From NCBI GenBank assembly GCA_024637115.1, contig JAGXFU010000011.1, forward strand, positions 62,001 through 126,000: 64,000 nucleotides of DNA, written 5' to 3'. The stretch's first letter is position 1. Each line of letters starts with the position of its first letter. The notes below the pieces were generated by a model, which had not been told where the DNA came from, made no database searches, and worked only from the letters and a program-made list of their open reading frames with translations. Both the position numbers and the translations under genes were made by a program. This document shows, piece by piece, positions 12,558 through 22,256 of the stretch. The stretch comes from Actinomycetes bacterium. Lineage in GTDB: Bacteria > Actinomycetota > Coriobacteriia > Anaerosomatales > JAGXFU01.

Positions 12558-13268
12558 CTACACGACATCTTCGAAGACACGCGCCAGCGATCTTCTCAGC
12601 AGAAGGGCCGTCAACTCGCGGGTCTGATCGCTCAGCTCGCCGAGGGTCTCGGCGAGTTTCAGACGGGTCTCGGGAGTTCGATGTCTAAATGTGGGCATGA
12701 GAATCTGAGAGAAGAAGGTGGATTCTCGCTCCGCGAACGTCTCATACATCCTCAGGTGACGCGGCTCGACTCCAAAACGGCGCATCTCCCAACAGACATG
12801 TGCTATCTGGATGTCAGACGCCGTTATCTCGCGCCCACGCTCCCCATCCACAAGTCGAACGAGATTGAATTCTTCGAGTTCCTTGATGAAGGTGGCAGGA
12901 AGGCCGAGAGACGCAGGGATGTCATCGATCCGAACCGTCTCACCAGCGCCACCGTCGACGGCTGCGGAGGGTAGCGCCGTCTTCGCTCCTTTGAGTTCAG
13001 AAGGGATCTTTCCCTTGTCGTAGTCAGCAAGCCTCTCGCGAATCACAGCCAGAGGCAAGAAGTGCTCCTTCTGAAGACGCAAGATATGCTCGATACGAGT
13101 AACGTCATCGGCGCGGAACTTCCGGTAGCCCCCGGCCGTCCGTTCAGGGGAAACCAGACCCTCTTCCTCAAGAAAGCGAACCTTGGATATTGAGAGGTCG
13201 GGAAAGCGATCAGCGAGCGCGTCGACCACTTCTCCGATCGTCATGTAGTCACGCGGCAACCCACTCAC
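12558..13268 (-). CDS. MerR-family regulator, FtsR-like
   Basis: 236-residue MerR regulator. The N-terminal winged helix begins at MTIGEVVDAL, with the MerR signature SKVRFLEEEGLVSPERTAGGYRKF (about residues 26-49) followed by DVTRIEHILRLQ. A second winged-helix-like segment near residues 100-170 (ITASDIQIAHVCWEMRRFGVEPRHLRMYETFAERE) is characteristic of the Rv1828/FtsR group, which activates ftsZ in Corynebacterium. The GTG start at 13268 overlaps the stop of the FHA gene (GTGA). The FHA-MerR pair matches garA-Rv1828 in Mycobacterium. Its targets here are unknown. Confidence 0.82.
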   Translation of the reverse strand: MSGLPRDYMTIGEVVDALADRFPDLSISKVRFLEEEGLVSPERTAGGYRKFRADDVTRIEHILRLQKEHFLPLAVIRERLADYDKGKIPSELKGAKTALPSAAVDGGAGETVRIDDIPASLGLPATFIKELEEFNLVRLVDGERGREITASDIQIAHVCWEMRRFGVEPRHLRMYETFAERESTFFSQILMPTFRHRTPETRLKLAETLGELSDQTRELTALLLRRSLARVFEDVV

Positions 13269-13714
13269 GCACCCTTCGGACCGGCAAGAAACACCATCTG
13301 GAACATGCCGATCTGAAGTGAGTCGCCACTTGAGAGGTCCGCTTTGTCGACGCAGACTCCGTTGACGTACGTGCCGTTGAGCGATCCGGAGTCCAATACG
13401 GTCACGTGGTCGCCAACCCGTCCGACCACTGCATGTCTACGTGACACCGTGACGTCATTGAGGAAGACGTCCGAGGAGGGATCACGACCGATGGACATGT
13501 CGCCCTCGTCGATATAGAAGCGCTCGCCCATCTCGGCGCCCTTCGATACCACAAGGACAGGACCCTCGGTGTCTCCAAACTCGGCTATCGCTTCTGCGGC
13601 CTCGGCACTCACGGGCTGAAACGACTGAGTCGTTCCCGCTAGTTTCAATCCGCACTCCGGACAAGCGTCGGCGTTCTGCTCGACCGGAGTTCCGCATGAT
13701 GGACACGCGTTCAT
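13265..13714 (-). CDS. Zinc-ribbon/FHA-domain protein, GarA-like
   Basis: 149 residues. The N-terminus is a zinc ribbon with two Cys pairs (CPSCG at 4-8 and CPECG at 18-22). A linker with a Thr-Thr pair (T28-T29) in GTTQSF follows, then a C-terminal FHA domain (about 60-145) with the phosphothreonine-binding landmarks MSIGRDPSSDV, VSRRHAVV and LNGTYVNG. FHA proteins bind phosphorylated partners of Ser/Thr kinases. In mycobacteria the equivalent locus encodes GarA, which controls 2-oxoglutarate use through phosphorylation of a Thr in an ETTS motif. The zinc ribbon is not part of GarA. No kinase gene is in this window. Confidence 0.85.
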   Translation of the reverse strand: MNACPSCGTPVEQNADACPECGLKLAGTTQSFQPVSAEAAEAIAEFGDTEGPVLVVSKGAEMGERFYIDEGDMSIGRDPSSDVFLNDVTVSRRHAVVGRVGDHVTVLDSGSLNGTYVNGVCVDKADLSSGDSLQIGMFQMVFLAGPKGA

Positions 13715-13745: not shown

Positions 13746-14006
13746 TTAATCAGAGAAACCAAATTCATGCTTCTGGAATGAGTGGGAAATCTGCTCTTCG
13801 AGAGCACTGATGACTTCCGGACTCTCCAGAACATGATCCAGACGCTCGGCACTCAAGCGATTCTTCACGTACGGGTCAGCGAGAGCCTCAGAGAGCTTTC
13901 GCCCATTGTGCACCTCACGAATGACGTACTCGACGACACGTTCTTCGATCGCGTCGGTGGCAAGATCATCGAGAAACTCCTGCAACTTGTCACTAATGGA
14001 CGCCAC
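13746..14006 (-). CDS. Conserved small protein of unknown function
   Basis: 86 residues, soluble, predicted largely helical, without Cys or membrane segments. It contains VVEYVIREVHNGRKLSEALADPYVKNR, which looks like a short helical bundle. GTG 14006 has a strong AAGGAGG 7-8 nt upstream. It lies 38 nt after the RsiG-like gene and 31 nt before the FHA gene, all on one strand, so it is probably co-transcribed with them. I do not recognise the family; a link to the RsiG-like or FHA protein is only positional. Confidence 0.7.
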   Translation of the reverse strand: MASISDKLQEFLDDLATDAIEERVVEYVIREVHNGRKLSEALADPYVKNRLSAERLDHVLESPEVISALEEQISHSFQKHEFGFSD

Positions 14007-14044: not shown

Positions 14045-14347
14045 CTACTCGTCTTCGTCTGCGGCCACGTCAACATCGGAAACGCCCCGCAGGTCAGACG
14101 CAAGAATACCGATCAGCTTGTCAATGTCAGAACCGGAGATGACATCTTTGCCAGCCTCGCGATTGGCCTTAAGTCGACCAACGAGTTCAGCTCGCAGAAT
14201 GTCGATGCGACCGTGCAACACGCGCCGGCGATATGAGATCCGCTGCTCTTCCTCATGCAGATCATTGAGCATCTCTCTGAGCTGCTCGTTGGTTCTGCCG
14301 GCGAGATCGAGCAACGCCTCGTCGAAACGCTCGTCGTGCTCGCTCAT
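14045..14347 (-). CDS. RsiG-like c-di-GMP-binding anti-sigma factor candidate
   Basis: 100 residues, helical, with a coiled-coil centre. Residues 34-49 read E-x3-S-x2-R-x3-H-x3-D (E34, S38, R41, H45, D49). RsiG of Streptomyces binds c-di-GMP through E-x3-S-x2-R-x3-Q-x3-D, so only the Gln differs. Flanking residues (SYRRRVLHGRIDILRAEL) also fit my recollection of the family. One motif copy is present, as in the Rubrobacter form that works as a homodimer; Streptomyces has two. In that system RsiG with c-di-GMP holds the sigma factor WhiG. No WhiG-type sigma gene is in this window. GGAGGGG precedes ATG 14347. The function is inferred from the motif alone. Confidence 0.7.
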   Translation of the reverse strand: MSEHDERFDEALLDLAGRTNEQLREMLNDLHEEEQRISYRRRVLHGRIDILRAELVGRLKANREAGKDVISGSDIDKLIGILASDLRGVSDVDVAADEDE

Positions 14348-14459: not shown

Positions 14460-15251
14460 TCATTCGACGTGCGTGACCTGCACATCTCCCATGAGTTCCC
14501 TGGCAAGCATCAGCTCTGTATTGCTGAGAGAGCCCGGAACGACCCGTACGGACATCTCAGCAGCGAGTGCGGCAACACATGCAGCTGTGATCTCATCCGT
14601 TCCCGGAGCGGGATCCAACACATCAGCGAGAGTCGCCGTACCCAGGGCCAGCGCTTGCGCCTCATCGCCATCGAGCCTGAAGACGCGCGCCTCACGCACA
14701 AGGTCCCGACTGCGCACGAACGAGCCATGCTGCAAACAAGTGCCGTGATGCCAGACTTGCGCGCTTCCGGAGAGTTTCGCCACCCCAACAGACAGATCTG
14801 CATGCGTAGCGTGGAGATAGCACGCCGAGGAATCACGCGCCCCTCGGGGGCGAGCGGTGAGTTCAGCCGGAACACCGAGTGCGACATAGGTGCGCGCAAG
14901 CACGCTACACAGCATACGATAGCTCGCTGAGACACCGCGCGGAAGCCCGTCGCGCTCCCCCATCACAAACGAGTACGTGAGTTCATCATCGTGGAGAACG
15001 CCTCTCCCGCCTGTGAATCTCCGAACCACGTCGATCCCGAGGCTCTGGCAGGCCGCACCGTCAACGCCCGATGATGGCTGAAATCGACCCAGCGTAACGG
15101 TGGGACGCTGCCAACGATAAAGACGGACAGTTGGCGGGCACTCCCCCGCCGCATGCTGGATCTGTATCGCACGATCCACGGCCATGTTCCATGCCGAGTC
15201 GCATGCGCCGTCATCGAGCAGTCGCCACTCGGGGGTCACGAGAGCGTTCAC
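14460..15251 (-). CDS. Lipoate/octanoate-protein ligase family, LipM-like octanoyltransferase
   Basis: About 263 residues of the LplA/LipB/LipM superfamily. Visible landmarks are [17 protein letters not shown], the lipoyl-binding [20 protein letters not shown], a Cys at about 144 (SSACYLHAT) at the LipM nucleophile position, and the conserved Lys in VAKLSGSAQ (about 159) followed by CLQHGSF. The Cys argues for an acyl-ACP octanoyltransferase (LipM, or the amidotransferase LipL) rather than an ATP-dependent ligase. GTG 15251 overlaps the gcvPB stop (GTGA); a TTG at 15269 is an alternative. Its place at the end of the gcv set suggests it lipoylates GcvH; lipA is not in this window. Confidence 0.82.
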
Positions 15252-16747
15252 TTCTCTGGAGCAGTCCAACGCAGGATCGGCTCACGCGCCGCACGAGCTT
15301 CATCCAGACGACGAACCGGAGTCGTGTGCGGCGCGGAGTGAAGTGTATCCGGGTGCGTGGCAGCCTCATGTGCAATCGCAATGAGCGCATCTGCAAACGC
15401 ATCCAGAGCCGACAACGGCTCCGTCTCTGTCGGCTCTATCATCAGGGCTTCATCGACGATCTGCGGGAAGTAGACGGTGGGTGGGTGGAAACCATGGTCG
15501 AGCAGGCGCTTCGCAACATCGAGCGTGCGCACACCATACTCACGCTTCAGCCGTCCGCCGGACAACACGAATTCGTGCATGCACACGCGGTCATAGGGCA
15601 GATCGTATGCGGTCTTCAGGCGTTCCTTGAGATAGTTCGCGGAGAGCACAGCCTGCTCCGCCACCTCAGTCAGACCCTCACCACCCAGAGCACGAACATA
15701 CGTGTACGCACGCACCAGTACACCGAAATTGCCAAAGAAACTCCGGACCCGCCCGATCGTGCGTGAAGGGTCATGTGGCACAAAGGTGCCATCATCCAGT
15801 AGCGCAACGATCGGTGACGGCAGATACTCCGCCAACTCCGGGGTTACGCACACGGGACCCGCGCCGGGGCCACCGCCGCCGTGAGGCGTGGAGAACGTCT
15901 TATGCAGATTGATGTGCAGCGCGTCGAAACCCATGTCTCCCGGTCGTGTCTTTCCAAGAATCGCGTTCATGTTCGCGCCATCGCAGTACGCATAGGCACC
16001 AACAGCGTGAACGGCCTCGGTGATCTCCAGGATCTGAGGATCGAACAGGCCAACGGTGTTCGGATTCGTGAGCATGAAAGCGGCGGTATCCGTATCCAGC
16101 GCCGCCTTGAGCGCCGCGAGATCGACCAACCCGTCCGGTCCGCTCGGAATGGTCACGGTGTCGTACCCGCACATCGTCACCGATGCGGGGTTTGTTCCGT
16201 GGGCTGTGTCCGGAATGACGACCTTCTTGCGCGGATCGCCGGAGGCGGTGTGCGCAGCACGAAAACACATGAGTGCCGTCAGCTCTCCATGAGCCCCGGC
16301 TGCGGGCTGCAGGGTGACCCCGGGCAATCCGGAGATCTCGGCGAGGGCCTCCTGAAGTCGGTACATTAGCTCAAGCGCACCCTGCACGGTCTCTGTGGAC
16401 TGCAATGGATGCACGCCGGAAAAGCCTTCAAGGCGACACGCATCCTCGTTCACGCGGGGGTTGTACTTCATCGTGCACGAGCCCAGCGGGTAGAAGCCTG
16501 AGTCCACGCCAAAGTTCATGTCAGCCAAATGCGAATAGTGGCGCATGATCTCAAGCTCAGTCACGTGCGGAAGACTCAAGGCCCTCGTTCGGGCGACGCC
16601 GCCGAGCGCTTCATCGAGAACAACTTCCGGAACATCGAGTTCCGGAGGGAGTACGCACGTGGATTCCGCGCCTCCGAGTTCGTAGATTGCCTCTCGCGGG
16701 CCTCGGTTCGGAGCGCCGCCGGGCGTATGAGCCAGTTGCTCGGTCAT
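15248..16747 (-). CDS. gcvPB: Glycine dehydrogenase (decarboxylating) subunit 2
   Basis: PLP-containing half of the two-subunit P-protein of the glycine cleavage system, 499 residues. The PLP Lys is in [18 protein letters not shown], and the family segments [16 protein letters not shown] and [10 protein letters not shown] are present. With GcvPA it decarboxylates glycine and passes the aminomethyl group to lipoyl-GcvH. Its ATG overlaps the gcvPA stop (ATGA), consistent with equimolar synthesis. Length and motifs are complete. Confidence 0.96.
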
Positions 16748-20962: not shown

Positions 20963-21045
20963 AACCCGCTGGTCAGTATGTATTTATGGGATAATGTGCG
21001 TGCCCAAGTGAACCATAGGATACGCGTACAGGCCAGGAGTTGACC

Positions 21046-21384
21046 ATGATTCGCCACATGCAACGCGAAGAGGCAGGGTTCAACCTTCTTGAGCTCATGA
21101 TAGTCGTGGCTATCATGAGCATTCTTGTTGCCATTGCAATGGCTTCGTACGCAGTGTCGGTTCAGAACGCGCGCACGATCAGTTGCATCGCGAATCAACG
21201 GATACTCGATGAGGCCGCGAGCGTGTTCCGAGCCGAAAGCGAAAGGAACCCGACCGATATCGAGGATCTGCGTGGATACGCGAATACCTTCGACAAGATC
21301 ACGTATTGCCCGTCGGACCGCACCGTGAAGCTCTCTTGGAATACCACTACTGAGGAAATCGAGTGCGCAATTCACCCACGATAG
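21046..21384 (+). CDS. Orphan type IV pilin-like protein
   Basis: 112 residues beginning with a prepilin signal: a short basic/acidic leader MIRHMQREEAG, then the processed helix FNLLELMIVVAIMSILVAIA with Glu at +5. The cleavage site is G/F as in class III signals; the usual Thr at +2 is Asn. The C-terminal domain is short, with two Cys (SCIAN and TYCPSD) that could form a disulfide, and ends like major pseudopilins. ATG 21046 has AGGAG 6 nt upstream; TTG 21040 is an alternative. No prepilin peptidase, PilB/C or other pilus gene is nearby, so assembly factors must lie elsewhere. The next gene follows after 44 nt. Confidence 0.85.
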   Translation: MIRHMQREEAGFNLLELMIVVAIMSILVAIAMASYAVSVQNARTISCIANQRILDEAASVFRAESERNPTDIEDLRGYANTFDKITYCPSDRTVKLSWNTTTEEIECAIHPR

Positions 21385-21428
21385 ACTGGCCCGATGCCAC
21401 GGTTGTTTCGCATCCTAGAGGAGGATCG

Positions 21429-22256
21429 ATGAAGTACTCGCGTTTCGAGTTGCTCGTTCTGGTCGTTGGCATCTCCGCTGTCGTAGGGAGCATCGTCCTA
21501 GGAAGCAGTGGCACGTTGATTGCCGAAGAGGTCGCGGCGCAGGCCCTGCTGCTCGGCGTGTTGTTCATAGCAGTTCATTGGGGACGCAACGGAGGATTCT
21601 GGGCAGCAGTTGTGGCCTCGCTCGCCTATCTCTCCTTGCGGTTACCGCTCGTAATCAGTGAGGGAGTCACAACCGAACTCGTATCCCTGGTCTTGGTGCG
21701 TGTGTTGTCCTACGGGCTCATAGGCGTTGTCGGCGGAGAGTTGTGTTCCCGGATCAAATACGTCTTTGCGAAGCTCGAGAGTTCCTCCAGCATTGATGAC
21801 TGGAGTCAGCTATTCAACCAGCGTATCCTCATCCGTTCGATGGAGACCGCGTGCGGTCAGTTCACTCGATATGAGACGCCGTACTCCGTGGTATTCGTTG
21901 AGCTGGCACCGAGTCTCACCAGTGATCTTCGCGTCTCCAAACAACGCACGCTCATTCGCAGCGTTGCCGACCATATCCGAGGAGACGTTCGACTGGTTGA
22001 CGAAGCCGGTCGACTCGATGACGGACGCTTTCTCATCGTCTTGCCTCAGACTCCACAAGACGGCGCCCGAATCGTTGCTGATCGAATCCGCCGAGGGGTG
22101 TGCAATCTTCTCGGATCGAAAGACGAATCTGTCAACGTCACTGCGCTGTCCGCCCCCGAAAATGCCGCGAACCTCGTCGAGATCCGCACATCACTAGCGG
22201 CCGAGACGGAAGATCGGCGCGAGCGCGCGCGACAAGCGACTCAGACGTCTAGCTGA
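21429..22256 (+). CDS. Membrane protein with degenerate GGDEF domain
   Basis: 275 residues from ATG 21429, which has AGGAGGA 5-6 nt upstream. The N-terminal half has four to five hydrophobic helices (about residues 5-115). A linker then leads into a GGDEF-like domain (about 125-265). The catalytic loop, normally R-x-GGDEF-A, reads RLDDGRFLIVLPQT, so GGDEF is replaced by DDGRF and both metal-binding and GTP-binding residues are lost. It should not make c-di-GMP; a binding or structural role, or control of the adjacent pilin, is possible. Its 3' end overlaps the convergent ACT gene by 16 nt. Confidence 0.75.
   Translation: MKYSRFELLVLVVGISAVVGSIVLGSSGTLIAEEVAAQALLLGVLFIAVHWGRNGGFWAAVVASLAYLSLRLPLVISEGVTTELVSLVLVRVLSYGLIGVVGGELCSRIKYVFAKLESSSSIDDWSQLFNQRILIRSMETACGQFTRYETPYSVVFVELAPSLTSDLRVSKQRTLIRSVADHIRGDVRLVDEAGRLDDGRFLIVLPQTPQDGARIVADRIRRGVCNLLGSKDESVNVTALSAPENAANLVEIRTSLAAETEDRRERARQATQTSS

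What the first reader, a model, noticed from the sequence alone, without database searches (positions are those of the whole stretch)
14045..14347. Single-motif RsiG-like protein, a candidate c-di-GMP-dependent anti-sigma
Residues 34-49 match E-x3-S-x2-R-x3-Q-x3-D except His for Gln. Streptomyces RsiG uses this motif to bind c-di-GMP and hold WhiG; a single-motif form is known from Rubrobacter. Here it is coupled in position to FHA and FtsR-like genes, which suggests a link between c-di-GMP, phosphorylation and division outside sporulating actinobacteria. The His could alter nucleotide specificity.
Basis: partly seen in the sequence, partly recalled or inferred. Interest (0 to 1): 0.66.

Follow-up and report, generated by a model that had tools for sequence, protein, structure and literature searches.

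The report
The gene encodes a small protein of a known family (RsiG) that most likely traps the sigma factor WhiG when the signal molecule c-di-GMP is abundant; comparison of genomes indicates that this switch controls type IV pili in a bacterial group where it had not been described, and that the gene sits in a very old, unexplained operon with a phosphorylation-sensing gene and a cell-division gene.

Summary
The ORF at 14045-14347(-) is real and is a single-motif RsiG: Pfam RsiG E=1e-19, with Rubrobacter RsiG as the best PDB hit. Single-motif RsiG is already known from Rubrobacteria and Thermoleophilia, so this is a new lineage (Coriobacteriia), not a new kind. The His does not imply a new ligand: Conexibacter RsiG has His at this position and was shown to bind c-di-GMP and not c-di-AMP. 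The partner sigma exists: WhiG lies elsewhere in the genome, above the NCBIfam WhiG cut-off, with the residues that contact c-di-GMP conserved. RsiG and WhiG co-occur across the phylum (232 genomes both, 14 and 23 with one, 128 neither). All 30 major type IV pilin genes examined in the order have a WhiG-type promoter 43-77 bp upstream. In the window's genome three such sites precede pilus genes. So the best model is a c-di-GMP-armed anti-sigma controlling pili, as in Rubrobacter. The link to division is positional only, but strong: single-motif rsiG is followed by an OdhI/GarA-like FHA gene and ftsR in 35 of 35 loci outside the order, against 0 of 23 twin-motif loci. I found no report of this.

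The parts
14045..14347 (-). rsiG: single-motif RsiG, 100 aa; predicted N-terminal helix (3-13), long coiled-coil helix (20-64) and C-terminal helix (72-87)
   Evidence: Pfam RsiG E=1e-19; PDB RsiG hits; AlphaFold2 model pLDDT 80
14201..14248 (-). c-di-GMP motif E34-S38-R41-H45-D49
   Evidence: Sequence; four of the five motif positions invariant in a 37-sequence alignment, position 45 His or Gln
13746..14006 (-). H86: conserved all-helical 86-aa protein of unknown function between rsiG and the FHA gene
   Evidence: Present in most order loci and in 11 of the 20 further single-motif loci; no Pfam family; AlphaFold2 pLDDT 82, no PDB match
13265..13714 (-). Zinc-ribbon + FHA protein, OdhI/GarA-like, with a TTQSF stretch resembling the GarA/OdhI phospho-Thr site
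   Evidence: Pfam FHA E=9e-17; OdhI model 110 bits, below its cut-off of 200
12558..13268 (-). ftsR: MerR-type regulator FtsR
   Evidence: NCBIfam NF050798 205 bits, cut-off 150
14460..15269 (-). Lipoate-protein ligase upstream of rsiG; conserved neighbour in the order, probably not part of the switch
   Evidence: Pfam LplA-B_cat E=3e-30; synteny

Best explanation
The protein is the c-di-GMP-dependent anti-sigma factor RsiG. Two subunits pair through the long helix into an antiparallel coiled coil. [quoted passage not shown] High c-di-GMP therefore keeps WhiG off RNA polymerase. Low c-di-GMP frees WhiG to transcribe genes with T(A/C)AAG-N14/15-GCCGATA(A/C/T) promoters, chiefly type IV pilins, pilus ATPase operons and some c-di-GMP turnover enzymes. 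Shown here: family, motif, fold elements, the partner sigma with its contact residues, co-occurrence, and the promoter/pilin association. Inferred from the solved homologues: dimerisation, ligand binding and anti-sigma action.
For: Family. Motif. Helix-linker-helix-linker-helix layout as in Rubrobacter RsiG: and PMC8325347. WhiG in the own genome (G000:C7, L051:8900-9691-): NCBIfam WhiG 374.5 bits, cut-off 343; S. venezuelae WhiG 6pfj E=5e-96 against FliA 1e-50. The contacts K/G/R and Rubrobacter N47 are kept. GGDEF: 14 in the own genome. Co-occurrence in the class: RsiG 65/69 and WhiG 66/69 in the own order, 0/181 elsewhere. Phylum: 232 both, 14 RsiG only, 23 WhiG only, 128 neither, phi 0.80. 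Promoters: 11 exact TAAA-N15-GCCGATAA sites in 61 genomes against 0 for the reversed pattern, 7 of them in front of the major pilin. 30/30 pilin genes have a site with 2 or fewer mismatches at 43-77 bp, reversed control 3 or more. TAAAG-N14/15-GCCGATAH gives 71 sites against 1 control. Own genome: pilA, a minor-pilin operon and a flgM-like/pilB operon.
Against: No binding or interaction has been measured for this protein. whiG is not next to rsiG. The own-genome pilA and flgM-like sites each have one mismatch, and the strict TAAA-N15-GCCGATAA pattern is not enriched over control in the own genome (2 against 4). Co-occurrence counts are not corrected for phylogeny. In 14 genomes RsiG occurs without a detected WhiG, though several are incomplete and at most 7 candidates per genome were scored.
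Confidence: 0.87

Rival explanations
1. RsiG here mainly serves its own operon: it works with the FHA protein and/or FtsR, linking c-di-GMP to Ser/Thr phosphorylation and division, with WhiG binding secondary or absent.
For: Single-motif rsiG precedes FHA and ftsR in 35/35 loci outside the order and in the order loci, against 0/23 twin-motif loci; in one genome rsiG and FHA share one open frame.
Against: Rubrobacter RsiG, whose closest match here (L111) has the same neighbours, was solved bound to WhiG (PMC8325347). WhiG contact residues are conserved and the regulon is pilus genes. odhI/garA-ftsR is conserved across Actinobacteria (PMC6683498), so the linkage may only reflect ancestral gene order.
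Confidence: 0.08
2. The histidine changes the ligand, so the protein is armed by another nucleotide such as c-di-AMP or cGAMP.
For: His is the only departure from the S. venezuelae motif.
Against: His is frequent in alpha-1 of RsiG homologues. C. woesei RsiG with His bound c-di-GMP and not c-di-AMP. The guanine-reading residues R41 and D49 are invariant, and all genomes searched in the order hold GGDEF proteins.
Confidence: 0.03
3. It is a vestigial RsiG that no longer controls WhiG.
For: rsiG and whiG are unlinked; no direct activity data.
Against: Motif positions invariant across the order; RsiG and WhiG present together in nearly all order genomes and both absent from other Coriobacteriia orders.
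Confidence: 0.02

Closest known systems
Rubrobacter radiotolerans RsiG (PDB 7lq2/7lq3/7lq4; PMC8325347)
   Same: Single motif, about 100 aa, same helix layout, WhiG partner, type IV pilin and DGC genes as predicted targets; the Rubrobacter-like locus L111 has the same FHA-ftsR neighbours
   Different: Class Coriobacteriia instead of Rubrobacteria; His instead of Gln in the motif; longer charged linker and C-terminus; H86 gene between rsiG and FHA
Conexibacter woesei RsiG (PMC8325347)
   Same: Single motif with His at the fourth position; shown to bind c-di-GMP specifically and WhiG
   Different: Class Thermoleophilia; regulon not studied in the paper
Streptomyces venezuelae RsiG (PDB 6pfj/6pfv)
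   Same: Same motif family and sigma partner
   Different: Twin motif, monomeric, controls sporulation; twin-motif loci sampled here are not next to FHA/ftsR
odhI/garA-ftsR cluster of Actinobacteria (PMC6683498)
   Same: FHA gene followed by ftsR
   Different: That report finds the region upstream of odhI variable; here rsiG is fixed upstream in single-motif lineages

Membership tests
RsiG (single-motif) | Profile similarity above the curated cut-off | tested here: met
   PF22802 70.4 bits, cut-off 27
RsiG (single-motif) | E-x3-S-x2-R-x3-[Q/H]-x3-D motif, one copy | tested here: met
   Residues 34-49; E34, S38, R41 and D49 invariant, position 45 His or Gln, in 37 sequences; no second motif in 100 aa
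RsiG (single-motif) | N-terminal helix, long coiled-coil helix and C-terminal helix joined by Gly-containing linkers | tested here: met
   AlphaFold2 H3-13, H20-64, H72-87; monomer Foldseek search uninformative
RsiG (single-motif) | Antiparallel homodimer | not testable with these tools
   No multimer prediction offered
RsiG (single-motif) | Binds c-di-GMP | not testable with these tools
   Inferred from C. woesei and R. radiotolerans RsiG
RsiG (single-motif) | Cognate WhiG in the same genome with c-di-GMP contact residues | tested here: met
   NF004935 374.5 bits, cut-off 343; K, G, R and N kept
RsiG (single-motif) | Inhibits WhiG | not testable with these tools
   Needs pull-down and transcription assay
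FtsR | NCBIfam equivalog cut-off | tested here: met
   NF050798 205 bits, cut-off 150
OdhI/GarA (neighbour) | NCBIfam OdhI equivalog cut-off | tested here: not met
   110 bits, cut-off 200: OdhI/GarA-like FHA protein only
FlgM (WhiG-promoter gene L215:9260-9529) | Pfam FlgM cut-off | tested here: inconclusive
   21.7 bits, cut-off 25; one relative 26.2 bits

The most novel reading that the evidence does not exclude
Single-motif rsiG, the OdhI/GarA-like FHA gene and ftsR (often with H86) form an ancient operon that works as one module, joining c-di-GMP (through RsiG-WhiG and pili), Ser/Thr phosphorylation (FHA) and ftsZ control (FtsR). The module was broken when RsiG duplicated its motif. In part of this order c-di-GMP would also act twice on one transcript: at a WhiG promoter through RsiG and at a c-di-GMP-I riboswitch in the leader.
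Probability: 0.3. Interest if true: 0.75.

Novelty: new member of a known kind. Interest (0 to 1): 0.5.

Why it matters
[quoted passage not shown] This supports pilus control as the old role of the switch, with sporulation as a later use. The fixed rsiG-FHA-ftsR order gives a testable lead to a link between c-di-GMP, Ser/Thr phosphorylation and division, and the WhiG-promoter/c-di-GMP-I riboswitch leaders are a direct test case for two-level control by one messenger.

Tried and rejected
A monomer Foldseek search with the RsiG model was uninformative because a lone long helix matches nothing specific; the same held for H86. The strict Rubrobacter promoter pattern showed no enrichment in the own genome (2 sites against 4 reversed); it became informative across relatives (11 against 0) and with the consensus learned from pilin genes. 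The idea that His alters specificity was rejected on published binding data. A WhiG-promoter target in division genes was looked for among the sites with readable downstream genes and none was seen. The own-genome regions fetched hold no c-di-GMP riboswitch; the rest of the genome was not scanned. A putative rsiG-FHA fusion (L108) was not claimed, because a TTG with a plausible ribosome-binding site lies at the FHA start.

Full report
Observation. Pfam RsiG matches at E=9.9e-20, far over its cut-off, and the best PDB sequences are the RsiG proteins of Rubrobacter radiotolerans and Streptomyces venezuelae. The genome has one copy. Named relatives are Coriobacteriia.

Family test. In 37 sequences from the order and from other single-motif lineages, E34, S38, R41, G46 and D49 are invariant and position 45 is His or Gln; all 37 match Pfam RsiG. 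In the order, the 47 sequences examined all have His, but those were collected with a pattern that already required most of the motif, so one search is the fairer statement. AlphaFold2 gives helices 3-13, 20-64 and 72-87 with a glycine-containing linker, the layout described for R. radiotolerans RsiG (PMC8325347). A dimer could not be modelled.

The histidine. PMC8325347 reports that His often replaces Gln in alpha-1 of RsiG homologues. It also reports that C. woesei RsiG, a single-motif protein with His, binds c-di-GMP (Kd 25 uM alone, 1.7 uM with WhiG) and does not bind c-di-AMP. The residues that read guanine, Arg and Asp, are unchanged. A new ligand is therefore unlikely.

Partner sigma. 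WhiG is encoded at G000:C7 (L051:8900-9691-), next to rpsB-tsf-pyrH-frr and a response-regulator gene. It passes the NCBIfam WhiG equivalog cut-off and is closer to S. venezuelae WhiG (E=5e-96) than to any FliA (1e-50). The c-di-GMP contacts K, G and R of sigma-2, and the Asn that contacts Rubrobacter RsiG, are present and kept in 11 of 11 order WhiGs read. The sigma-4 contacts were not mapped. The genome holds 14 GGDEF matches.

Co-occurrence. In the class, RsiG is over cut-off in 65 of 69 own-order genomes and 0 of 181 others; WhiG in 66 of 69 and 0 of 181. This is one clade, so one event could explain it. Across 397 genomes of the phylum: 232 both, 14 RsiG only, 23 WhiG only, 128 neither, phi 0.80. 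Sets were typed from the listings; WhiG-negative counted 142 against the tool's 141. Counts are not corrected for phylogeny.

Regulon. Exact TAAA-N15-GCCGATAA, the consensus used in PMC8325347, occurs 11 times in 61 genomes against 0 for the reversed pattern. Seven of the 11 lie just upstream of the major type IV pilin gene, although the search knew nothing of genes. Taking the pilin gene instead as the starting point, 30 of 30 loci have a site with 2 or fewer mismatches, 43-77 bp before the start codon; the reversed control gave 3 to 6 mismatches. The pilin query came from a genome with an exact site, a mild bias. TAAAG-N14/15-GCCGATAH gives 71 sites against 1 control. Readable targets include major and minor pilins, PilB-type ATPases, GGDEF proteins, CheB-like proteins, multihaem cytochromes and FlgM-like proteins. 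In the own genome three sites with at most one mismatch were found in about 122 kb read: before pilA, before the minor-pilin operon, both in the pilus cluster L156, and before a flgM-like gene followed by a second pilB. These regions were fetched because of pilin, sigma, GGDEF or promoter hits, so they are not a random sample. This matches the published Rubrobacter regulon of type IV pili and DGC/PDE genes.

Gene neighbourhood. LplA-rsiG-H86-FHA-ftsR is conserved in the order; H86 is missing in three loci. Outside the order, 35 of 35 single-motif rsiG loci have FHA and ftsR on the same strand downstream (ftsR cut off by the contig end in L112), while 0 of 23 twin-motif loci do. The odhI/garA-ftsR pair itself is known to be conserved across Actinobacteria, with a variable upstream region (PMC6683498). 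What appears unreported is that single-motif rsiG is fixed upstream of it; the main text of PMC8325347 does not mention FHA, MerR or synteny. The FHA proteins read carry a zinc ribbon and mostly a TT/AT-x-x-F/Y-like stretch, reminiscent of the GarA/OdhI phosphosite; this resemblance is from my own knowledge. A functional link is inferred, not shown.

Two-level control. In 11 loci of relatives the WhiG-type promoter is followed, 37-42 nt after the -10 box, by a c-di-GMP-I riboswitch over Rfam's gathering score, upstream of a small secreted protein with an HExxH-like motif. Whether the riboswitch turns expression on or off is not known. No such leader was found in the own-genome stretches or the window.

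Conclusion. The protein is a new member, in a new class, of a known kind: the single-motif RsiG anti-sigma. The mechanism follows solved homologues with high confidence; the division/phosphorylation link remains a well-motivated hypothesis.

Noticed in passing
L161, L165, L169, L184, L185, L187, L188, L189, L191, L192, L092: WhiG-type promoter followed 37-42 nt later by a c-di-GMP-I (or c-di-GMP-I-GGC) riboswitch and a small secreted protein with an HEIWH/HEVWH-like motif: two c-di-GMP sensors on one transcript.
   Followed up: partly
window 13746-14006 (-): H86, an uncharacterised, well conserved all-helical 86-aa protein between rsiG and FHA, also in other single-motif lineages; no Pfam family, no PDB fold match.
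   Followed up: partly
L215:9260-9529 (-) and L215:7163-9025 (-): FlgM-like small protein (Pfam FlgM 21.7 bits, below cut-off) 10 bp behind a WhiG-type promoter, followed by a second PilB-like ATPase gene: a possible second anti-sigma and feedback loop.
   Followed up: partly
L156:11339-13015 (-): PilB of the own pilus cluster carries an MshEN domain, a known c-di-GMP-binding domain in Vibrio MshE, so pili may also be controlled by c-di-GMP at the level of the ATPase.
   Followed up: no
window 21040-21384 (+) and 21363-22256 (+): Pilin-like gene followed by a protein resembling a degenerate GGDEF domain; a pilin-like gene lies about 7 kb from rsiG in many relatives too.
   Followed up: no
L108: rsiG and the zinc-ribbon FHA gene lie in one open frame in genome G467; could be a fusion or a TTG internal start.
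   Followed up: partly
genomes G308 and G352: Five and six RsiG matches per genome, unlike the usual one or two.
   Followed up: no
L051:8286-8870 (-): CheY-like response regulator gene directly downstream of whiG in the own genome.
   Followed up: no
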